From Saprospiraceae bacterium (GTDB lineage Bacteria > Bacteroidota > Bacteroidia > Chitinophagales > Saprospiraceae): DNA of 45,049 nucleotides. This document shows positions 1-44,846 of this stretch, piece after piece; position 1 is the first letter of the stretch, and each line of letters starts with the position of its first letter. The stretch covers positions 1 through 45,049 of the forward strand of contig JALWRC010000087.1 of assembly GCA_027080725.1 (NCBI GenBank), written 5' to 3'. Both the position numbers and the translations under genes were made by a program. The notes under the pieces are model-generated. The model was not told the origin of the DNA, did not search any database, and worked only from the letters and a program-made list of their open reading frames with translations.

Positions 1-72
1 TCGGAGAATAGTATTCCAATATCAAATTTAACCATCGAAGATGTGATGGATGATTTAGGCAAACTTAAATAG
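1..72 (+). CDS. UPF0175 family protein, C-terminal end (cut by window edge)
   Basis: The last 23 codons of a UPF0175-type gene are visible. They are identical to the end of the complete copy at 1939-2199 (residues ending NLTIEDVMDDLGKLK). Only the window edge hides the rest, so there is no sign that this copy is broken. Its TAG stop is the first triplet of a dispersed repeat (see 70-182). The function is as for the complete copy: a small helix-turn-helix protein of the antitoxin type. Confidence 0.8.
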   Translation, partial: SENSIPISNLTIEDVMDDLGKLK

Positions 73-182
73 TGCCTGCAAGAAAACGCTTTGAAATAAG
101 AAATGTATCTTTTGGCGATCTTTTGAATGCCATTCTAAAGATACAAGGAGAATCTAAAATAGATAAAAGGCCTGCCGGATAA
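70..182 (+). repeat. Dispersed TAGTGC-type repeat with a 36-codon ORF
   Basis: The repeat starts with TAGTGCCTGCAAGAAAAC and shares its first ~55 bases with 2197-2253 and, reverse-complemented, with 24072 leftward and 29210 leftward. A GTG at 72-74, overlapping the UPF0175 stop by one base, opens a 36-codon frame ending at 182 whose start reads xPARKRFEIRNVSFGDLL. The same peptide start is encoded at the other copies, so the frame travels with the element rather than with UPF0175. UPF0175 genes are often followed by a PIN-domain toxin; none is present here. Whether the peptide is made is unknown. Confidence 0.7.
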
Positions 183-198
183 TTAACTATTGTATATC

Positions 199-903
199 AT
201 GAATTACAGATGGCTCATAGCCTTATTCGCATTTTTACCGTTAACCCTGTTTTCTCAGGGTGTTTACCTCGAGTACCTCTACACTAATCTTCTCATTCAT
301 TCAGAAAAGCGAATCCCGGAAGAAATCCAGAATATGTATATTTTCGAATACCATTGGCTACTCGGATATGAGCACCGGTTTAAAAACGACTGGTATGCGA
401 GCATCGACTACACCAATTATTTTAACAGCCCGGGTTTTGGAGTTGTCGAAAAGAGCTATGCCAGCAATGGAATTGGTATTGGATTTTCAAGAACACATCT
501 ATTGGGCTTGGGCGTAAAACGGAGCTTTCACGACCCATGGAAAAGATGGACCCTATCGCCCGGGCTCTACCTTCGGGCCGTCTATATTCAAAGAACATCT
601 TCAGATTTCGAATGCATTCAGTTTTCTACACACGAACATGGAGATGATTTTATCGGCTGTATTGACGCGCATGCCTATCCCGGATTCAAACCGCCATTGG
701 TGGAGCTGCGACTGCCGGTAGAGTTCAGAATATGGCGGGGATGGCGGGTGTATTTTAAGCTGGGGTGGACTTTGGGCTTTAAGCGGTTTCAGGACATCAG
801 TTACCACTGGACTTATGTGGGGAGTACGGAGCATCATGATCTCACCCACTATATCAATGGCACGGGTATCACCTCCGGTCTCGGTCTAAAAGTCAATTTT
901 TAA
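199..903 (+). CDS. Predicted outer-membrane beta-barrel protein, family A, copy 1
   Basis: No named family is recognised. The 234-residue product has an N-terminal signal peptide (MNYRWLIALFAFLPLTLFSQ, cleavage likely after SQ). It then has alternating aromatic/polar strands typical of a small barrel and ends in a C-terminal phenylalanine (GLGLKVNF), as many outer-membrane proteins do. The ATG at 199 is preferred over an in-frame TTG at 190 because it begins the signal peptide directly. The last 16 residues resemble the end of the downstream family B protein (NGTGITSG motif), so A and B are themselves paralogues. Gene B follows after 18 bp, so they probably share a transcript. Compared with copy 2 (2326-3030), the differences cluster in short segments near residues 25-45, 70-85 and 130-145, the likely loops. 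Confidence 0.75.
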   Translation: MNYRWLIALFAFLPLTLFSQGVYLEYLYTNLLIHSEKRIPEEIQNMYIFEYHWLLGYEHRFKNDWYASIDYTNYFNSPGFGVVEKSYASNGIGIGFSRTHLLGLGVKRSFHDPWKRWTLSPGLYLRAVYIQRTSSDFECIQFSTHEHGDDFIGCIDAHAYPGFKPPLVELRLPVEFRIWRGWRVYFKLGWTLGFKRFQDISYHWTYVGSTEHHDLTHYINGTGITSGLGLKVNF

Positions 904-921
904 CCTTTAAGTCATCCCGTT

Positions 922-1659
922 ATGAAAAGAGTTATAATCTTCTTGGCGCTGGTACTGATATCACTATCTTCAAAAGGACAGTCCATCGCCGAAGAGTTGA
1001 CCGGATGGACGTATTATGCCCAAGGTACGCTCACAGGGGGAGGCTCTATTAAGATCAAGCCTTTTAGTGCTGTAAGCGTCAGTCTGGATCATTATCTATA
1101 TGAGCACAGGATCTACAAGCCTTGGGGATTGTATGCGTCGATAGGATATAACCCGGGAGCCTACCCCGATTTATTTTACACCATAGAGGATCTGGACAAT
1201 TTCGTTCGCTTACCCCTTTCATTCAAAATCCGCGCGTACGATGTGGGAGTATCCCGGTACGGCACTTGGTACCATGGGCGGTTTCGGTGGGGTATTGGTG
1301 CCTATCTGGTGATGAGCAAGGTATCGAGGATGTATGAAGATGTAACGGATTGCCGGTTTACCTACAAAGAGGTTTATCCTGTCCCTTTCGACTATTGTGC
1401 AATGATACAAGTCAACCCGGGGTGGAAGGTGGAGCCCATGCTCCGCGGGAGTGTAGGGATCACCCTAGCGAAGTACTTCCACATTTATGCCTTCTTCCAG
1501 GTAAAGTACGGTTTTTCTGACTATGCGACGTGGAAGTTTCACATTCGACAGGACAACGAGGTAGTCAAGACATTGGAGGTGCGAGTCAATGGCACAGGCA
1601 TCACCTCCGGCATCGGCATCAAGGCGGATTTGGTGGATCTTATGAAAAGAGTGCAGTGA
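922..1659 (+). CDS. Predicted outer-membrane beta-barrel protein, family B, copy 1
   Basis: The 245-residue product begins with a clear signal peptide (MKRVIIFLALVLISLSSKGQ). The mature part is rich in Tyr, Trp, Phe and Gly with alternating strand patterns, and contains NGTGITSGIGIKADL near the end, like family A. No catalytic motif is visible, and an envelope barrel is inferred from pattern only. It lies 18 bp after gene A. It differs from copy 2 (3049-3774) mostly around residues 24-28, 36-38 and 76-90, while the region from about residue 95 to the end is almost unchanged. The C-terminus extends four residues beyond that of copy 2 (RVQ after DLMK). Confidence 0.75.
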   Translation: MKRVIIFLALVLISLSSKGQSIAEELTGWTYYAQGTLTGGGSIKIKPFSAVSVSLDHYLYEHRIYKPWGLYASIGYNPGAYPDLFYTIEDLDNFVRLPLSFKIRAYDVGVSRYGTWYHGRFRWGIGAYLVMSKVSRMYEDVTDCRFTYKEVYPVPFDYCAMIQVNPGWKVEPMLRGSVGITLAKYFHIYAFFQVKYGFSDYATWKFHIRQDNEVVKTLEVRVNGTGITSGIGIKADLVDLMKRVQ

Positions 1660-1938: not shown

Positions 1939-2199
1939 ATGAAAACTCACACCATTTCAATTGATTTCCCTTCTGATATTCTTTTAGCATTAAATGAATC
2001 AGAAAGTGAATTAATAAAGCAAATCAAAATTTCATTAGCAATTCGTTTGTATTTAGCGGGGAAGCTCAAATTAGGTAAGGCCGCTCAAGTCTCCGGGCTG
2101 TCGAGATTTTCATTTGAAACTTATTTATCGGAGAATAGTATTCCAATATCAAATTTAACCATCGAAGATGTGATGGATGATTTAGGCAAACTTAAATAG
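1939..2199 (+). CDS. UPF0175 family antitoxin-like protein
   Basis: The 86-residue product matches the UPF0175 layout: an N-terminal strand region (MKTHTISIDFPSDIL), a helix with LAIRLYLAGKLKLGKAAQVSGLS and a recognition-like helix followed by the PISNLTIEDVMDDL end. Family members are small helix-turn-helix proteins commonly paired with a PIN-domain toxin and treated as antitoxins. Here no PIN gene follows; the stop codon TAG is the first triplet of a dispersed repeat, and barrel gene A comes next. It may be an orphan whose toxin was lost, or a regulator of the barrel genes with which it is duplicated. The latter is inference. Confidence 0.8.
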   Translation: MKTHTISIDFPSDILLALNESESELIKQIKISLAIRLYLAGKLKLGKAAQVSGLSRFSFETYLSENSIPISNLTIEDVMDDLGKLK

Positions 2200-2309
2200 T
2201 GCCTGCAAGAAAACGCTTTGAAATAAGAAATGTATCTTTTGGCGATCTTTTGAACGCCATTCTAAAGATACAAGGAGAATCTAAAATAGATAAAAGGCCT
2301 GCCGGATAA
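2197..2309 (+). repeat. Dispersed TAGTGC-type repeat with a 36-codon ORF, copy in unit 2
   Basis: It is nearly identical to 70-182. The one difference seen, in the codon for the Asn of LLNA, is silent (AAT to AAC), which is weak evidence that the frame was under constraint after duplication. A GTG at 2199-2201 overlaps the UPF0175 stop, and the frame ends at TAA 2307-2309. Confidence 0.7.
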
Positions 2310-2325
2310 TTAACTATTGTATATC

Positions 2326-3030
2326 ATGTATTACAGATGGCTCATAGCCTTATTCGCATTTTTACCGATGACCCTGTTTTCTCAGGGTATTTACCTCGAG
2401 TACCTCTACACCAGTCTTTTAAATATATCTGAAAAACCTATCCCGGAAGAAGTCCAGGGCGAGTATATTGAACAGGTTCACTGGCTACTCGGATATGAGC
2501 ACCGGCTAAAAGACGACTGGTATGTAAGTATCGACTACACCAATTATTTTAATATCCCTGTTTTTGCTGTTGTCGAAAAGAGCTATGACTGCAATGGATT
2601 TGGTATTGGATTTTCAAGAACACATCTATTGGGCTTGGGCATAAAACGGAGCTTTCACGACCAATGGAAAAGATGGACCCTATCGCCCGGGCTCTACCTC
2701 CGGGCCGTCTATATTCAAAGAACCTGGTGGGATTCCGAATGCGTACCATTAATTACACACGAACATGGAGATGATTTTATAGGCTGTATAGACACACATG
2801 CTTACCCCGGATTCAAACCCCCATTGGTGGAGGTGCGACTGCCGGTAGAGTTCAGGATATGGCGGGGATGGCGGGTGTATTTTAGGTTGGGGTGGACTTT
2901 GGGCTTTAAGCGGTTTCAGGACATCAGTTACCACTGGACTTATGTGGGGAGTACGGAGCATCATGATCTCACCCACTATATCAATGGCACGGGTATCACC
3001 TCCGGTCTCGGTCTAAAAGTCAATTTTTAA
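2326..3030 (+). CDS. Predicted outer-membrane beta-barrel protein, family A, copy 2
   Basis: The 234-residue paralogue of 199-903 has signal peptide MYYRWLIALFAFLPMTLFSQ and the same C-terminal GLGLKVNF. The start ATG at 2326 is chosen over the in-frame TTG at 2317 for the same reason as in copy 1. Strand-like blocks such as WLLGYEHR, FGIGFSRTHLLGLG and PVEFRIWRGWRVYF are conserved. The replaced stretches are short (for example HSEKRIPEEIQNMYIFEY against ISEKPIPEEVQGEYIEQV, and SSDFECIQF against WWDSECVPL). That pattern fits surface loops under diversifying selection or repeated recombination. Function unknown. Confidence 0.75.
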   Translation: MYYRWLIALFAFLPMTLFSQGIYLEYLYTSLLNISEKPIPEEVQGEYIEQVHWLLGYEHRLKDDWYVSIDYTNYFNIPVFAVVEKSYDCNGFGIGFSRTHLLGLGIKRSFHDQWKRWTLSPGLYLRAVYIQRTWWDSECVPLITHEHGDDFIGCIDTHAYPGFKPPLVEVRLPVEFRIWRGWRVYFRLGWTLGFKRFQDISYHWTYVGSTEHHDLTHYINGTGITSGLGLKVNF

Positions 3031-3048
3031 CCTTTAAGTCATCCCGTT

Positions 3049-3774
3049 ATGAAAAGAGTTATAATCTTCTTGGCGCTGGTACTGATATCACTATCTTCAA
3101 AAGGACAGTCTATTGCCGTAGAGAGAACCGGTTGGACATATTATGCCCAAGGTACGCTCACAGGGGGCTCTATTAAGATCAAGCCTTTTAGTGCTGTAAG
3201 CGTCGATTTAGATCATTATCTATACGAGCATAGGATTTACAAGCCTTGGGGATTATATGCGTCGATAGGTTATTCCCCCGGAGCTTATCCGGATTTATTT
3301 TACACTGTAGAGGAATTGGGCTATTACGTTAGTTTGCTATACTCCATCAAAATCCGAGCATACGATGTGGGAGTATCCCGGTACGGCACTTGGTACCATG
3401 GGCGGTTTCGGTGGGGTATTGGCGCCTATCTGGTGATGAGCAAGGTATCGAGGATGTATGAAGATGTAACAGATTGCCGGTTTACGTACAAAGAGGTTTA
3501 TCCTGTCCCTTTCGACTATTGTGCAATGATACAAGTCAACCCGGGGTGGAAGGTGGAGCACATGCTCCGCGGGAGTGTAGGAATCACCCTAGCGAAGTAC
3601 TTCCACATTTATGCCTTCTTTCAGGCAAAGTACGGGTTCTCTGACTATGCGGCGTGGAAGTTTCATATTCGACAGGACAAGGAGGTGGTCAAGACATTGG
3701 AGGTGCGAATCAATGGCACAGGCATCACCTCCGGCATCGGCATCAAAGCGGATTTGGTTGATCTTATGAAATGA
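3049..3774 (+). CDS. Predicted outer-membrane beta-barrel protein, family B, copy 2
   Basis: The 241-residue paralogue of 922-1659 has the identical signal peptide. Differences concentrate in two places: right after the signal peptide (AVERTGW against AEELTGW) and in the segment TVEELGYYVSLLYSIKIR against TIEDLDNFVRLPLSFKIR. The second half is almost the same. It lies 18 bp after family A copy 2 and is probably cotranscribed. A 53-codon 3' fragment of a third member survives at 5108-5266. Family not recognised; an envelope location is inferred. Confidence 0.75.
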   Translation: MKRVIIFLALVLISLSSKGQSIAVERTGWTYYAQGTLTGGSIKIKPFSAVSVDLDHYLYEHRIYKPWGLYASIGYSPGAYPDLFYTVEELGYYVSLLYSIKIRAYDVGVSRYGTWYHGRFRWGIGAYLVMSKVSRMYEDVTDCRFTYKEVYPVPFDYCAMIQVNPGWKVEHMLRGSVGITLAKYFHIYAFFQAKYGFSDYAAWKFHIRQDKEVVKTLEVRINGTGITSGIGIKADLVDLMK

Positions 3775-5083: not shown

Positions 5084-5107
5084 TGACAGGCGACATATAA
5101 CAAAGTC

Positions 5108-5266
5108 TTCTATCAGGCAAAGTACAGGTTCTCTGACTATGCGGCGTGGAAGTTTCACATTCGACAGGACAACGAGGTGGTCAAGACATTGGAGGTGCGA
5201 ATCAATGGCACAGGCATCACCTCCGCTATCGGCGTCAAGGCGGATTTGGTTGATCTGTCGAAATAA
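5108..5266 (+). pseudogene. 3' fragment of a third family B barrel gene
   Basis: The 52 codons FYQAKYRFSD...KADLVDLSK plus the stop match residues from about 190 to the end of the complete family B genes, still in frame, with a few changes (SAIGV for SGIGI, DLSK for DLMK). Everything upstream is replaced by the MNT/HEPN operon. The fragment shows that at least three units once existed and that the third was interrupted or deleted. Confidence 0.85.
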
Positions 5267-13947: not shown

Positions 13948-14495
13948 CCTGTCACTACAAAACCAAAAACAAACAATCGCTCCAATATTCCGATATACGT
14001 TCCTGCTTTTTCGAGTGAAGGTTCTTCCGGGTCAGGTTGCGTTGAGGAGTCTCTATCATTCCACTTAGCAATGACCATCTTAACGATGATAGAAGCGACT
14101 TGAGTAACCATTAATAGAGCAACGGCACCCAATAGTATTCTCTCCCGAGAGACAAAAGCCAGTTGAACCGGATGATAATATTGTACAAAAATCAGTACTA
14201 TCAATAAATGCAGGAATTGGTCCATAAAAAAGAGAGGAGCTTTGGCTATCTTTCCTGAGAATGCAGCTTTTGCAATATCTATAAACAAGTGACTTATTAC
14301 AATAACAGAATACCCCACCCAATACCGGACATCTGCATAAAAAGCGAATAGAAACAACAAAGCATGTACCCCGATATGGTAGTACAAATATTTGGATCTC
14401 CATTTTCTCGCCTGTCTGTCTTCAATCCATTTGGTAGGCTGAAAGAGAAAATCACCGGCAAAGTGCGCTAGTATCAACCTTAAGGCTAAATCCAT
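13770..14495 (-). CDS. DUF3307 integral membrane protein
   Basis: The 241-residue product matches DUF3307: it starts MDLALRLILAHFAGDFLFQP, has several transmembrane helices and the conserved SHLFIDIAKA and FFMDQFLHLLIV segments with His and Asp inside the membrane region. The family has no established function. Its start lies inside the satD-like gene (44-bp overlap), so the two are tightly coupled. Codon use is more AT-rich than in psd and aacS next door. Membrane His/Asp residues suggest metal or ion involvement, which is inference. Confidence 0.88.
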   Translation of the reverse strand: MDLALRLILAHFAGDFLFQPTKWIEDRQARKWRSKYLYYHIGVHALLFLFAFYADVRYWVGYSVIVISHLFIDIAKAAFSGKIAKAPLFFMDQFLHLLIVLIFVQYYHPVQLAFVSRERILLGAVALLMVTQVASIIVKMVIAKWNDRDSSTQPDPEEPSLEKAGTYIGILERLFVFGFVVTGHWEGIGFLLAAKSVFRFGDLSNAKDRSRTEYILIGTLLSFGLAMLTGMIFLFFLTKVP

Positions 14496-15099
14496 GATTA
14501 AAATGTTTGGCTACGAGCTTTTGATATCTTTCTATCATCCGCATAATTTCTTCAAAACCGGCTCTTTTCAATCCTTCACTTATGGTGCTTGTAGATTTAT
14601 TTAATAGATTGGCTAATTCCTTCTGATTCAGTTCCGGATTCTCAAGTGCGACTTTAACTATTTTAGCGGTATTGGGCAACCATCTATCCATTACTAATAG
14701 CGCCAGGGAAAGGTATAGATTAACTTCTTCATCAAACTCTTTATCAGGCGATCTGACGGCTAAGGTCCTTTTCTTTAGCTCATCAAAGCATCTACCGGAG
14801 TAAGTATAAGCATTTCCGGATGACTCGGTAATCCGTTCCGAACCGGAGGCCTCTTCTCCCAAACCAATCGCCATTCTCACATCGATATTCTTTGTTTGCT
14901 TCACTACCGTCTTGATATAAATGGCCGCTTCCAGCGCTTTTTCAGGTGCCAGTTTAACCTGATAACTATCCCCTCGATAAATTTCCCATTCTTCCGGAGA
15001 GTTACCCAATTTGTTCAATGCACCTTTAAGCCTATCCATCCATTTATTATCGGGGGCCTCACCCGAATTAATGATGTCACCTGTGATTACAGCTATCAT
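14452..15099 (-). CDS. SatD family protein
   Basis: The 215-residue product matches SatD: MIAVITGDIINSG (Asp8), EIYRGDSYQVKL (Asp44), IDVRMAIGLGEE (about 72-83), GNAYTYSGRCFDEL (about 95-108), then a helix-turn-helix (NQKELANLLNKSTSTISEGL in order, about 158-177). The first part is laid out like a class III nucleotide cyclase/GGDEF fold with both metal-binding Asp positions kept; that is my inference. The start at 15099 gives the family N-terminus; an upstream extension to 15147 would not. It overlaps the DUF3307 gene by 44 bp. Three palindromic repeats lie 52-129 bp upstream and may be its operators. Confidence 0.87.
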   Translation of the reverse strand: MIAVITGDIINSGEAPDNKWMDRLKGALNKLGNSPEEWEIYRGDSYQVKLAPEKALEAAIYIKTVVKQTKNIDVRMAIGLGEEASGSERITESSGNAYTYSGRCFDELKKRTLAVRSPDKEFDEEVNLYLSLALLVMDRWLPNTAKIVKVALENPELNQKELANLLNKSTSTISEGLKRAGFEEIMRMIERYQKLVAKHFNHGFSLKVDTSALCR

Positions 15100-15150
15100 A
15101 ATAATGTAATATTTACCCAAAGATACAACCCATATATCAGACTGCAAAAT

Positions 15151-15228
15151 AATTCGGTGATTTTGCCGAATTATCCCAAATTCGGTGATTTTGCCGAATT
15201 ATCCCAAATTCGGTGATTTTGCCGAATT
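15151..15228. repeat. Three tandem 28-bp palindromic repeats upstream of satD
   Basis: Units start at 15151, 15179 and 15207. Each is AATTCGG-TGATTTTG-CCGAATT, the first two followed by the spacer ATCCCA; the three palindromes are identical. The array begins at the psd stop codon and ends 52 bp before the satD ATG (reading on the minus strand). Perfect conservation and regular spacing suggest a repeated operator, perhaps for the SatD helix-turn-helix. A terminator role for psd is less likely as no T-run follows. Confidence 0.9.
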
Positions 15229-16034
15229 TAACCGCACAAATGCTGCCCCAAAAGCACCCTTGCGACGGGTTCCAATGTGATGGTATCGAGGATTCGGTTG
15301 TCCATGAGGAGCAAGACGGTGGAGCCCAACTCGAAGTAACCGAGTTCTTCAGATTTGCGGAGGTCATAACTGACCCACTCCTCAAATCCCCTTCGCTTTT
15401 TAATCCTCGCATCCCAATCCTCGATAAAACTCAATACTGTCTTGCCGACAATCATCGCCCCGATAAATACAAAGTCAAAACGCCCGTAGGAACAGCTACC
15501 ACTCAAGACGACGCGTTCGTTTTTGCAATAGAGTTGGGAAATCTTCAAAACGCTTTTCTCATTGACGGGATAGAGCTTGCCCGGGATATAGGCGATGCGG
15601 TCTATCCTCATATCAAATGGGGCATGCACCCGGTGGTAATCGCCGGGAGACAAGTAAATCGTCGCGAAGCTACCGGTCGCAAAGGGTTCGAAGGTGGTAA
15701 TTTTTCTTTGGTCGGCCAACTTTCCTTTGCACTGGATGATCTTGGACGCCTTTAGCAAGCCCCCATTGAAGTAGTAGCCCTCCGCCGGGGATGCGATACC
15801 GGACTCAAATTGCCGGACTCCGGGCTTCCACTTCCTTGTAAAAAACTCGTTGAAGGTCTTGACCTGGCGAATGTCAAAATCAAACTGTTCCAGGTCTATC
15901 TTATATATCCGGCAATACACCCGCACTGCCATTCGAACGACGAAGCCGGGAAACCGGGTGCCGGCCAACCAGCCTATGACACGTGTCACCCGCTGCTGTC
16001 CCAATAGATTGATAATATGAACTCCTATGGCCAT
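15228..16034 (-). CDS. psd: Phosphatidylserine decarboxylase proenzyme
   Basis: The 268-residue product is the membrane-associated pyruvoyl enzyme that makes phosphatidylethanolamine. The self-cleavage motif LGST (236-239, cleavage before Ser238) and the SPGDYHRVHAPF block (129-140, including His134) are present. In most members the first motif is SPxDG, whose Asp belongs to the self-cleavage triad; here it reads SPAEG (82-86), an Asp-to-Glu change. It follows aacS after 8 bp and shares its transcript. Its stop codon abuts the palindrome array, and a new cassette (satD-DUF3307) follows. Confidence 0.94.
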   Translation of the reverse strand: MAIGVHIINLLGQQRVTRVIGWLAGTRFPGFVVRMAVRVYCRIYKIDLEQFDFDIRQVKTFNEFFTRKWKPGVRQFESGIASPAEGYYFNGGLLKASKIIQCKGKLADQRKITTFEPFATGSFATIYLSPGDYHRVHAPFDMRIDRIAYIPGKLYPVNEKSVLKISQLYCKNERVVLSGSCSYGRFDFVFIGAMIVGKTVLSFIEDWDARIKKRRGFEEWVSYDLRKSEELGYFELGSTVLLLMDNRILDTITLEPVARVLLGQHLCG

Positions 16035-41760: not shown

Positions 41761-42450
41761 ATGAATTATTGGATGTTGTTTTTATTTCAAAGCAAGGGAG
41801 GAGCTGTCGAAGAAGAGGGAAAACAAACCTTGCTGGGTCTCATCACTCAGGGTGGACCATTGGGTGTCGCAATCGTGGCAATTTTGTTGGTTTTATCGGT
41901 CATAGCTGTCTTTATCTTTATCGAGCGTTATCTCACCATCAAAAAAGCTGGAAAGATAGACAAAACCTTTATGAATAACATTAGAGCAAGCATCATGTCC
42001 GGCAACATAGAGGGAGCAAAAGCCTTGTGCCGCAATACCAATTCTCCTATCGCAAGAATGGTCGAAAAGGGGCTCATGCGTATCGGCAAACCGCTCAGGG
42101 ATATCGAGACATCTATCGAGAACGTTGGCAATCTCGAGCTTTTCAAGCTCGAAAAGAACCTTCCCACTTTGGCCAATATCTCAGGAGCAGCTCCGATGAT
42201 CGGATTCTTTGGGACGGTTACCGGGATGATCCTCGCCTTCTATAAGATGGCCACCGAGGCCAACGTGACCCCGGACCTGCTCGCAGGAGGAATCTATCAA
42301 GCCCTTATTACTACTGCTTTCGGACTAGCAATTGGTATCTTTGCCTTTGTGGGATACAACTATCTGGTCGCTGCAGTGGACAAGGTGGTATTCGAGATGG
42401 AACGCCATACGGTAGAATTTATGGACCTCCTCCAAGAACCTACCCACTAA
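41761..42450 (+). CDS. MotA/TolQ/ExbB proton channel family protein
   Basis: The 229-residue product has three transmembrane helices: about 35-60 (GVAIVAILLVLSVIAVFIFIE in order), about 125-150 and about 170-195. The family core is ANISGAAPMIGFFGTVTGMI (in order), then LITTAFGLAIGIFAFVGYNY. With the two ExbD proteins it forms the proton-driven motor that powers TonB-dependent transport or Tol. The gene heads the exbB-exbD-exbD operon, and the second gene starts 11 bp later. Confidence 0.95.
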   Translation: MNYWMLFLFQSKGGAVEEEGKQTLLGLITQGGPLGVAIVAILLVLSVIAVFIFIERYLTIKKAGKIDKTFMNNIRASIMSGNIEGAKALCRNTNSPIARMVEKGLMRIGKPLRDIETSIENVGNLELFKLEKNLPTLANISGAAPMIGFFGTVTGMILAFYKMATEANVTPDLLAGGIYQALITTAFGLAIGIFAFVGYNYLVAAVDKVVFEMERHTVEFMDLLQEPTH

Positions 42451-42461
42451 ACACCGCTAGT

Positions 42462-42869
42462 ATGGCCATAAAAAAGAGAAATAAAGTCAATGCAGAATTT
42501 AGTATGTCGTCTCTGACGGACATCATATTTCTGTTGTTGATATTTTTTATGCTGACCTCCTCGATGGTACAAATCAATTTGGATTTGCCGGAATCGGACT
42601 CCAAGGCGCTCAATGAAGGCACTATCGTCCTGATGTTGACGCAAGAGGGGCAATACCGTCTCAACGGCAAGCCCATCAAATACTCCAAGCTGTCCCGCGC
42701 CATCCGCAACGAGATCGCCATACAGCTCAAAAAAGGAAAAAAGAAAAAGGATATCGGCGTGGCCATCGCCGCTGAGAAAATGTCCCCGTGGAGAAAAATC
42801 AACCCATTGCTCAATATGATCAGCAAGATGGGGGTAAAAGCTATCCTCGCCACAAAACCAAAAAATTAG
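42462..42869 (+). CDS. ExbD/TolR family protein 1
   Basis: The 135-residue product has a short cytoplasmic N-terminus, one transmembrane helix SLTDIIFLLLIFFML with the proton-binding Asp20, and a periplasmic domain (about 45-135). The insert KKGKKKKDIG is unusually Lys-rich. It is cotranscribed with exbB and a second exbD, as is common in Bacteroidota. Confidence 0.95.
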   Translation: MAIKKRNKVNAEFSMSSLTDIIFLLLIFFMLTSSMVQINLDLPESDSKALNEGTIVLMLTQEGQYRLNGKPIKYSKLSRAIRNEIAIQLKKGKKKKDIGVAIAAEKMSPWRKINPLLNMISKMGVKAILATKPKN

Positions 42870-42872
42870 GCC

Positions 42873-43274
42873 ATGTCTCTCAAGAAAGAATCCAAAATTA
42901 CTGCAGAATTCAATATGTCCTCACTTACGGACATCATTTTCCTGTTGCTGATATTTTTTATGCTGACTTCATCTATGGTGACCCCCAATGCCCTCAACCT
43001 CAAATTGCCCGGCAAATCTTCCGTTTCGGTATTGACCTCCAAGCCTATGGAGATTATCATAAAATCCAATGGCCAATACTATGTCAAAGGACGGCGTGTC
43101 TCCATCAGTGCTCTCAACCGCTTTTTGCGAAATATTGCGAGAGATAAGAGGGTAAAAAATAAAAATATTATTATCACTCCGCATCCCAATACCCCATTGA
43201 AATACGTAGCTGCACTAATGGATATCGCCCTAAAATACCGCATCAGCGCCATCTTAGCCACCCCCCCAAAATAG
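42873..43274 (+). CDS. ExbD/TolR family protein 2
   Basis: The 133-residue paralogue of the previous gene starts 3 bp after it. It has the same N-terminus pattern (AEFNMSSLTDIIFLLLIFFM in order, Asp20) and a different periplasmic domain with LKLPGKSSVSVL. Two ExbD types probably assemble in one motor complex or define two complexes. folC begins 6 bp after the stop codon. Confidence 0.95.
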   Translation: MSLKKESKITAEFNMSSLTDIIFLLLIFFMLTSSMVTPNALNLKLPGKSSVSVLTSKPMEIIIKSNGQYYVKGRRVSISALNRFLRNIARDKRVKNKNIIITPHPNTPLKYVAALMDIALKYRISAILATPPK

Positions 43275-43280
43275 CAGCTT

Positions 43281-44846
43281 TTGCCCGAGTTCCCCAGGCC
43301 CTTTACGACATTTGAAATTGCTATGGAATTTCTCTATAGTCAGCTCCCGATGTATCGCCGTTCCGGCGATAAAGCCATCAAAAAGGACCTCAACAACATC
43401 CGGCATCTCTGTCATTTTCTGAATGCTCCTCATCTCAAATATCCCGTTATCCACGTAGCAGGCACCAATGGTAAAGGGACGGTCTCACACATCCTTGCCG
43501 CCATACTCCAGGCCAATGGTTTGCGCACCGGCCTGTATACCTCGCCGCACTATACAGATTATAGGGAGCGCATCCGCATAGATGGCCAAATGATCAGCGA
43601 GGAACAGGTCGTCCGTTTTGTCAACAAAATCACTTCTGAAATCGAGGCGATTCGCCCCTCCTTTTTTGAGCTCTCCGTAGCCATGGCCTTTGACCATTTT
43701 GCCAACGAAAAAGTCGATATTGCCGTCATTGAGACCGGGCTCGGTGGACGGCTGGACTCTACCAATATCGTCTCTCCCCTACTGTCAGTCATCACCAATA
43801 TCGGGATAGATCACCAAGCCATGCTCGGCGACACCCTTCCCCTGATCGCAGCAGAAAAAGCGGGCATAATAAAGCCCGGGGTGCCGGTCGTCATCGGAGA
43901 GCGGCATCCCTCGACGGATAGGGTATGGACAGAGAAGGCCGGTGAAAGAAAATCGCCTTTGACCTTTGCTCAAGACATTGTTCGGTTAAAGCAGTATGAA
44001 ATCGCACCATCCGGGTTAGTATTCAGCCTCGAAGCATCTCCGTCCCTCCCTACCGGTATCCTTTCCACAGACCTGCACGGCCCTTTTCAAGAAGCTAATT
44101 TGACCACCGCCCTGGCAGCGTTCGAAATCTTATTTAGGCAATCTGACCTCACCCTGGATGCCGCAAAAAGCATAGAAGCACTACAACGGGTTCATCAAAT
44201 GACCGGTTACAAAGGGCGTTGGGAAATCGCCCCCGGCCCTCCGCTTATCATCGCGGACAGCGGTCACAACATCCATAGCCTGCCCGCTAATATCGCTTAC
44301 CTCCAGAAAATGCCCCATCGTCGATTGCATATCGTTTTGGGCATGGTCCGGGACAAGTCACATGACCCCATACTAGAGACCTTTCCCAAGGACGCCATTT
44401 ACTACTTTGCCCGGCCCAATGTGCCCCGCGGAATGGAAGCGACCGCCCTCCAACACAAAGCCCATCACTTTGGACTCAGAGGATACGCTTACTCCAATGT
44501 AAGAGCAGCATTGGAGGATGCCATAAAAAAGTCCACTCAGGATGATATTATTTTCGTCGGAGGAAGTACCTTTGTCGTAGCTGATTACTTACAAATATCA
44601 AACAATATGAAATTGCCGAAAATTGTCCAAAAATACCCCTATGTGCTCACTTTAGAACCCAAGCCCTATGCCTGGTGCACTTGTGGCTTGTCGGATAAAG
44701 ATCCGTTTTGCGATGGTTCGCACAAGGAAGTGGAGGGATTCAAATCCCTTCGTTTTGAGATCGAAGAGACTAAAAAAGTCGCCCTTTGTGGGTGCAAACA
44801 CACGAAGACCCCCCCCTATTGCGATGGAAGTCACAAGGCTTTATAA
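43281..44846 (+). CDS. folC: FolC (folylpolyglutamate/dihydrofolate synthase) fused to a twin-CDGSH domain
   Basis: The 521-residue frame has a complete FolC part (1 to about 437): P-loop HVAGTNGKGTVSH (58-70), LYTSPHYTDYRERI, then IETGLGGRLDSTN and the end FVGGSTFVVADYL. It runs without a stop into a 79-residue domain (from Met443, ATG at 44607) with two CDGSH iron-sulfur motifs: Cys466, Cys468, Cys477, His481 and Cys503, Cys505, Cys514, His518. Such domains are normally separate proteins beginning at this very Met (MKLPKIVQKYPYVL). It could be a real fusion, a lost stop codon, or a fused frame with internal re-initiation. The TTG at 43281 or the ATG at 43323 is the start. It adds glutamate to folates; the role of the cluster domain is unknown. 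Confidence 0.9.
   Translation: MPEFPRPFTTFEIAMEFLYSQLPMYRRSGDKAIKKDLNNIRHLCHFLNAPHLKYPVIHVAGTNGKGTVSHILAAILQANGLRTGLYTSPHYTDYRERIRIDGQMISEEQVVRFVNKITSEIEAIRPSFFELSVAMAFDHFANEKVDIAVIETGLGGRLDSTNIVSPLLSVITNIGIDHQAMLGDTLPLIAAEKAGIIKPGVPVVIGERHPSTDRVWTEKAGERKSPLTFAQDIVRLKQYEIAPSGLVFSLEASPSLPTGILSTDLHGPFQEANLTTALAAFEILFRQSDLTLDAAKSIEALQRVHQMTGYKGRWEIAPGPPLIIADSGHNIHSLPANIAYLQKMPHRRLHIVLGMVRDKSHDPILETFPKDAIYYFARPNVPRGMEATALQHKAHHFGLRGYAYSNVRAALEDAIKKSTQDDIIFVGGSTFVVADYLQISNNMKLPKIVQKYPYVLTLEPKPYAWCTCGLSDKDPFCDGSHKEVEGFKSLRFEIEETKKVALCGCKHTKTPPYCDGSHKAL

What the first reader, a model, noticed from the sequence alone, without database searches (positions are those of the whole stretch)
43281..44846. 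In-frame fusion of FolC with a twin-CDGSH iron-sulfur domain
A complete folate synthase is joined to a complete CDGSH protein by a five- to six-residue linker. The CDGSH part keeps its own Met start and all eight ligands. I know of no such fusion. It could link folate polyglutamylation to redox or iron status, or be a recent stop-codon loss.
Basis: partly seen in the sequence, partly recalled or inferred. Interest (0 to 1): 0.7.

Follow-up and report, generated by a model that had tools for sequence, protein, structure and literature searches.

The report
Folate enzyme fused to iron-sulfur protein
A folate-making enzyme and a small iron-sulfur protein, made from separate genes in the related bacteria examined that have both, are joined into one protein in both sequenced species of one bacterial genus; the fusion is real and inherited, but what it does for the cell is not shown.

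Summary
Confirmed. Window 43281-44846 (+) encodes one 521-aa protein: a complete FolC (TIGR01499, 348 bits, cut-off 163, profile 1-399 of 400) followed about three residues later by a complete tandem-CDGSH domain with all eight 3Cys-1His ligands. It is not an assembly error: the only other genome held for the genus (G001, 62% identical) has the same in-frame fusion with a linker two codons longer. In each of the two genomes it is the only match found to either part. Genus g101 (G108) has the same gene order unfused: folC with its own stop, a gap of about 200 nt, then a stand-alone tandem-CDGSH gene; the FolC tree groups it with the fused pair (98/97, long branch). So the fusion probably arose once, from tandem genes. 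No other FolC-CDGSH fusion was seen among listed matches of family, order and class samples (lists partly cut). Most likely both modules keep their own jobs, tethered and co-produced; redox or iron control of FolC is possible but unsupported. A new architecture made of two known families.

The parts
43281..44597 (+). FolC module (dihydrofolate / folylpolyglutamate synthase), residues 1-439, TTG start
   Evidence: TIGR01499 to residue 439; FolC fold
44598..44606 (+). linker, about 3 codons (residues 440-442); 5 to 6 by a wider reading; two codons longer in G001, in frame
44607..44846 (+). tandem CDGSH iron-sulfur module (type 6 CISD-like), Met443 to stop
   Evidence: 3tbn, E 2.4e-17
44676..44723 (+). 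first CDGSH motif, ligands C466 C468 C477 H481
44787..44834 (+). second CDGSH motif, ligands C503 C505 C514 H518
41761..42450 (+). exbB, first gene of the tight cluster that ends in the fusion gene
42462..42869 (+). exbD copy 1
42873..43274 (+). exbD copy 2, stop 6 nt before the fusion start

Best explanation
A genuine, vertically inherited translational fusion. In the common ancestor of this genus and g101 a tandem-CDGSH gene lay just behind folC, at the end of an exbB-exbD-exbD-folC cluster. In the ancestor of this genus the folC stop and the gap were lost and the two frames joined at the natural C-terminus of FolC (the before and after states are seen by comparison; the mutational step is inferred). 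The protein is probably made as one chain of about 57 kDa. The FolC half would do its normal ATP-driven glutamate ligation; the CDGSH half would carry two [2Fe-2S] clusters and do its usual electron-transfer or cluster-handling job (inferred from family knowledge). The main effect of the join would be one-to-one production and tethering, not gating of one half by the other (inferred).
For: One open frame with both modules complete. Same fusion in G001 at 62% identity, linker differing by two whole codons, all eight ligands kept although one motif reads CNGSH. One match only for the whole protein and for its CDGSH part in each genome, so the only FolC found is fused. Third-position differences 0.63 (FolC part) and 0.61 (CDGSH part) against NG86 dN of 0.36 and 0.14: both halves constrained in protein sequence. 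Unfused tandem state with the same exbB-exbD-exbD-folC-CDGSH order in G108. FolC tree: G108 + fused pair 98/97, fused pair 97/87. CDGSH tree: fused pair 100/98, with G108 84/81. A one-residue insertion between the motifs is shared by the two fused rows and absent from the 6 other rows aligned.
Against: No expression data. Internal initiation at Met443 could also give a free CDGSH protein; both species keep that Met. Independence of the two halves was not tested: from residue 451 on the model's pLDDT block means are 30-53, the alignment given to it holding no CDGSH relatives. Only two genomes carry the fusion. In the FolC tree G108 is flagged as a long branch whose place is unsure, and in the CDGSH tree its grouping with the pair is below the starred level.
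Confidence: 0.62

Rival explanations
1. The CDGSH clusters act as a redox or iron sensor that turns the attached FolC up or down, tying folate polyglutamylation to Fe-S status.
For: Short linker and fusion kept in both species. A folate/Fe-S connection exists elsewhere: YgfZ/COG0354 binds folate and supports Fe-S enzymes in E. coli (PMC3223725, passages). The cluster also holds exbB-exbD genes, often used for iron uptake (recalled).
Against: TIGR03317 (YgfZ) found in 0 of 3 genomes tested. In the 5 genomes of g29 and g113 with the next closest CDGSH proteins, folC and CDGSH lie on different contigs. No usable model of an interface.
Confidence: 0.15
2. The fused chain is made, but a free CDGSH protein is also made by internal initiation at Met443 and does the CDGSH work. 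Not exclusive of the best explanation.
For: Met kept at this place in both fused species, with A/T-rich sequence before it.
Against: The frame across the junction is open in both species despite strong divergence and a two-codon length change. The single TAnnTTTG promoter-like match (consensus recalled) near the junction in each species encodes conserved FolC residues; in G001 it does have a TTG at the expected spacing, so this is not decisive.
Confidence: 0.2
3. Neutral accident: stop loss without benefit, tolerated because the join is at free ends. Overlaps with the best explanation.
For: One genus only among the matches listed in the samples. The join is at the natural end of FolC.
Against: Present in both species in spite of high divergence. 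Neutral origin and later dependence cannot be told apart here.
Confidence: 0.3
4. Sequencing or assembly error that removed a stop.
For: None found.
Against: Same fusion, with different DNA, in another species' assembly.
Confidence: 0.01

Closest known systems
Type 6 CISD (tandem CDGSH; PDB 3tbn, which I take from recall to be MmCISD of Magnetospirillum; human CISD3, 6avj)
   Same: Two CDGSH motifs about 20 residues apart, all eight ligands; E 2.4e-17 to 3tbn and 8.6e-17 to 6avj
   Different: Here it is the C-terminal part of a 521-aa protein, not a stand-alone ~80-aa protein
Type 5 CISD (tandem CDGSH + glutamate synthase FMN-binding domain)
   Same: A tandem CDGSH module fused to a larger enzyme (PMC3174974, passages); such proteins also occur in the same bacterial family, e.g. 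L060
   Different: Partner is FolC, not glutamate synthase; CDGSH is C-terminal here and N-terminal there
FolC, bifunctional dihydrofolate/folylpolyglutamate synthase (TIGR01499; PDB 1o5z, 1w78, 1fgs)
   Same: Complete profile, P-loop, fold
   Different: Carries an extra C-terminal iron-sulfur module
Fatty acid hydroxylase-CDGSH fusion (L064)
   Same: C-terminal tandem CDGSH on another enzyme in the same bacterial family
   Different: Unrelated partner enzyme

Membership tests
FolC (TIGR01499) | score above curated cut-off over the whole profile | tested here: met
   348.3 bits against 162.65, profile 1-399 of 400
FolC (TIGR01499) | P-loop and other invariant residues | tested here: met
   GTNGKGT present; 37 columns are invariant over the window protein and 37 GTDB relatives, chosen from 62 extracted from 80 loci. 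Which of these are catalytic is recalled
FolC (TIGR01499) | Mur-ligase-type FolC fold | tested here: met
   Residues 1-440: 43 of 44 ten-residue blocks have mean pLDDT 81 or more, block 21-30 has 55; best PDB match 1o5z, E 1.6e-34, TM 0.85 by target
FolC (TIGR01499) | ligase activity (DHFS and/or FPGS) | not testable with these tools
   needs enzyme assay or complementation
Type 6 CISD | two CDGSH motifs about 20 residues apart | tested here: met
   21 residues lie between H481 and C503; definition from PMC3174974 passages
Type 6 CISD | eight 3Cys-1His ligands | tested here: met
   C466 C468 C477 H481, C503 C505 C514 H518, identical in G001
Type 6 CISD | no further domain (types are set partly by domain composition) | tested here: not met
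   fused behind FolC
Type 6 CISD | monomer with pseudo-dyad, two [2Fe-2S] clusters | not testable with these tools
   CDGSH half of the model is low confidence; clusters need spectroscopy
Type 5 CISD | C-terminal glutamate synthase domain | tested here: not met
   no Glu_synthase match at E 0.001

The most novel reading that the evidence does not exclude
The fusion is a redox- or iron-gated folate ligase: the CDGSH clusters report Fe-S status to the attached FolC, so that folate retention and one-carbon metabolism follow iron supply; this would be a direct covalent link between Fe-S state and folate polyglutamylation.
Probability: 0.12. Interest if true: 0.72.

Novelty: new variant of a known kind. 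Interest (0 to 1): 0.4.

Why it matters
What tandem CDGSH proteins do in bacteria is largely unsettled (recalled), and fusions to named enzymes are among the few clues to their partners. The passages read here name glutamate synthase (PMC3174974, PMC5859297), DUF1271 (PMC3174974) and Fer4_19 (PMC5859297) as partners; FolC would be a further one. G108, with the unfused tandem genes, gives a natural before-and-after pair, so any effect of the tether on folate ligation can be tested with two natural sequences.

Tried and rejected
Assembly error: rejected by the G001 copy.

Other FolC fusions hinted at by long open frames (G403, G014, G091, G601, G492, G024, G710, G394): in 8 of 8 fetched, FolC sits in a frame of its own, 433-480 aa, ending at a stop; where the sums fit, the long figures are FolC plus the next gene read through that stop.

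Other long CDGSH frames (504-546 aa, five listed): 4 of 5 fetched (G156, G281, G130, G126) read as CDGSH-glutamate synthase, one of them checked by Pfam; G160 was not fetched. Of the many frames of 279-396 aa only L064 was looked at (fatty acid hydroxylase-CDGSH); the rest are too short for a whole FolC plus CDGSH unless cut by a contig end, and were not identified.

L073 in the genome-contig scan seemed to match residues 15-514; it is FolC plus a chance piece. Phage records: 26 matched, of the 10 listed none reaches past residue 458.

YgfZ as a bridge: 0 of 3 genomes; 7 of 14 control genomes positive, none of the seven a Bacteroidota, so a divergent homologue could be missed.

A promoter of its own for the CDGSH gene in the G108 gap: three TAnnTTTG matches (consensus recalled), but of 6 loci (5 different genes) with stand-alone CDGSH only 1 had a match within 250 nt upstream; not used as evidence.

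Structure of the whole fusion: FolC half good, CDGSH half unusable.

Full report
OBSERVATION. The frame 43281-44846 (+) is open for 521 codons from a TTG. Pfam finds both Mur-ligase domains of FolC and two zf-CDGSH stretches. NCBIfam's folC model matches residues 37-439 over profile positions 1-399 of 400, 348 bits against a cut-off of 163, so FolC is complete. The CDGSH part from Met443 aligns end to end with stand-alone tandem-CDGSH proteins and matches solved chains 3tbn and 6avj. All eight ligands are present. The window is one whole contig and ends 203 bases after the stop, so what follows is unknown. The TTG start fits: it lies 6 nt after the exbD stop, where G001 has an ATG start 7 nt after its exbD stop; the next in-frame ATG (43323) would cut off sequence that aligns with relatives.

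IS IT REAL. Two genomes are held for the genus and both carry the fusion (2 of 2). G001 has a 525-aa frame, 62% identical, without stops. The DNA at the junction differs and the linker is two whole codons longer. Over aligned codons third positions differ at 0.63 (FolC part, 422 codons) and 0.61 (CDGSH part, 79 codons); NG86 returned no dS for either; dN is 0.36 and 0.14. That fits saturated synonymous sites and constrained proteins, but the first is an inference. Protein identity between the two species is 94% for ExbB, 92% and 91% for the two ExbD, 84% for CDGSH and 59% for FolC. Same-genus FolC pairs elsewhere were 67%, 68% and 93%, so FolC here is at the divergent end; without a matching measure of neighbours in those genera I draw nothing from it. 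In each of the two genomes there was one match only with the whole protein (E up to 0.001) and one with the CDGSH part (E up to 1e-6). If folate synthesis is needed, the fused FolC must work.

ORIGIN. Genus g101 (G108) has a tyrosine recombinase, an HPF-like gene (my naming), exbB, exbD, exbD, folC and then, 199-202 nt after the folC stop depending on the start chosen, a stand-alone tandem-CDGSH gene on the same strand, the same order as the window. Its ExbB and ExbD are 73-87% identical to the window's. The FolC tree of 41 rows joins G108 to the fused pair with 98/97 and the fused pair with 97/87, but G108 is flagged as a long branch. The CDGSH tree of 18 rows agrees: 84/81 for G108 plus pair, below the starred level, and 100/98 for the pair. 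In the five genomes of g29 and g113 whose CDGSH proteins are next closest (65-67% identical), CDGSH and folC lie on different contigs of draft assemblies. ExbD matches lie about 1 kb before folC in 10 of 41 other FolC loci (flanks of 1.5 kb at most). In the two of these read further (L158, L159) one gene stands between, which by eye looks like TonB; Pfam gave no match at 1e-5 for the one scanned. L158 has room for one exbD only. So CDGSH probably moved in behind folC in the ancestor of g1 and g101, and the two genes then joined in g1. The join is at the natural FolC end: relatives stop soon after the GGSTFVVAEVL-like end.

HOW FAR IT REACHES. One search covered 398 family genomes with the CDGSH part: 154 of 398 matched at 1e-6; of the matches listed (the list is cut) only G000 and G001 are FolC fusions, and the five other frames over 500 aa read as CDGSH-glutamate synthase where fetched (4 of 5). 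One search covered 396 order genomes with the whole protein: 376 of 396 matched at 1e-40, and of the matches listed (cut) none but G000 reaches past residue 479 of 521. One search covered 395 class genomes: 49 of 395 passed 1e-122, and none but G000 reaches past residue 465. The samples overlap, and fusions with a divergent FolC or a long linker could be missed. Separate FolC and CDGSH matches within 1 kb on one contig were seen only in G108 among the rows listed (100 genomes, list cut; 14 genomes).

MECHANISM. Shown: one frame, both modules intact, the same in two species, single copy in each. Inferred: one chain, normal FolC catalysis, two [2Fe-2S] clusters in the CDGSH half, tethering and equal production as the main effect. 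The model of the FolC half is confident to residue 440 apart from residues 21-30 and matches FolC structures; the CDGSH half is not, so an interface can be neither shown nor excluded. Regulation by redox or iron remains a guess. A known folate/Fe-S link, YgfZ (PMC3223725, passages), was not found in G000, G001 or G108 (0 of 3).

COMPARISON. CDGSH proteins have been sorted into seven types; type 6 is the tandem form, type 5 the tandem form plus glutamate synthase, type 7 is joined to DUF1271 (PMC3174974, passages). A second study names Fer4_19 and glutamate synthase partners (PMC5859297, passages; the term folylpoly does not occur in its main text). Paper searches: CDGSH and folylpolyglutamate, 1 paper, a salmon transcriptome study by its title; CDGSH and dihydrofolate, 27 papers, 15 listed, 13 of them on ferroptosis by title; CDGSH and Bacteroidetes, 5 papers; FolC and fusion terms, 58 papers, 15 listed; CDGSH and domain-architecture terms, 20 of 4,111 listed. 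No title or abstract start listed reports such a fusion. This covers open-licence papers only, and domain databases could not be searched for architectures. The finding is therefore, as far as seen, a new architecture made of two known families and confined to one genus.

VERDICT. Moderate interest.

Noticed in passing
window 1-1650 and 2128-3774: Tandem duplication, 91.8% identical DNA; each copy holds two related proteins of 237-245 aa without Pfam match at 1e-5 (25-28% identical to each other), with a partial third copy at 5107-5264.
   Followed up: partly
window 15151-15228: Perfect 28-bp tandem repeat, 2.8 copies, between the listed ORFs 14452-15147 and 15228-16034; each unit holds the inverted repeat AATTCGG...CCGAATT.
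   Followed up: no
window 43274-43281; L158 and L159: Two relatives read carry a gene that looks by eye like TonB between exbD and folC; it is absent from this place in the fused genus and in G108.
   Followed up: partly
L064 and L060-L063: In the same bacterial family tandem CDGSH is also fused to a fatty acid hydroxylase (C-terminal) and to glutamate synthase (N-terminal), so CDGSH joins enzymes repeatedly.
   Followed up: partly
L068:14048-14095: In G001 the first motif reads CNGSH instead of CDGSH, with all four ligands kept.
   Followed up: no
family sample: CDGSH matches are patchy: 154 of 398 family genomes at 1e-6.
   Followed up: no
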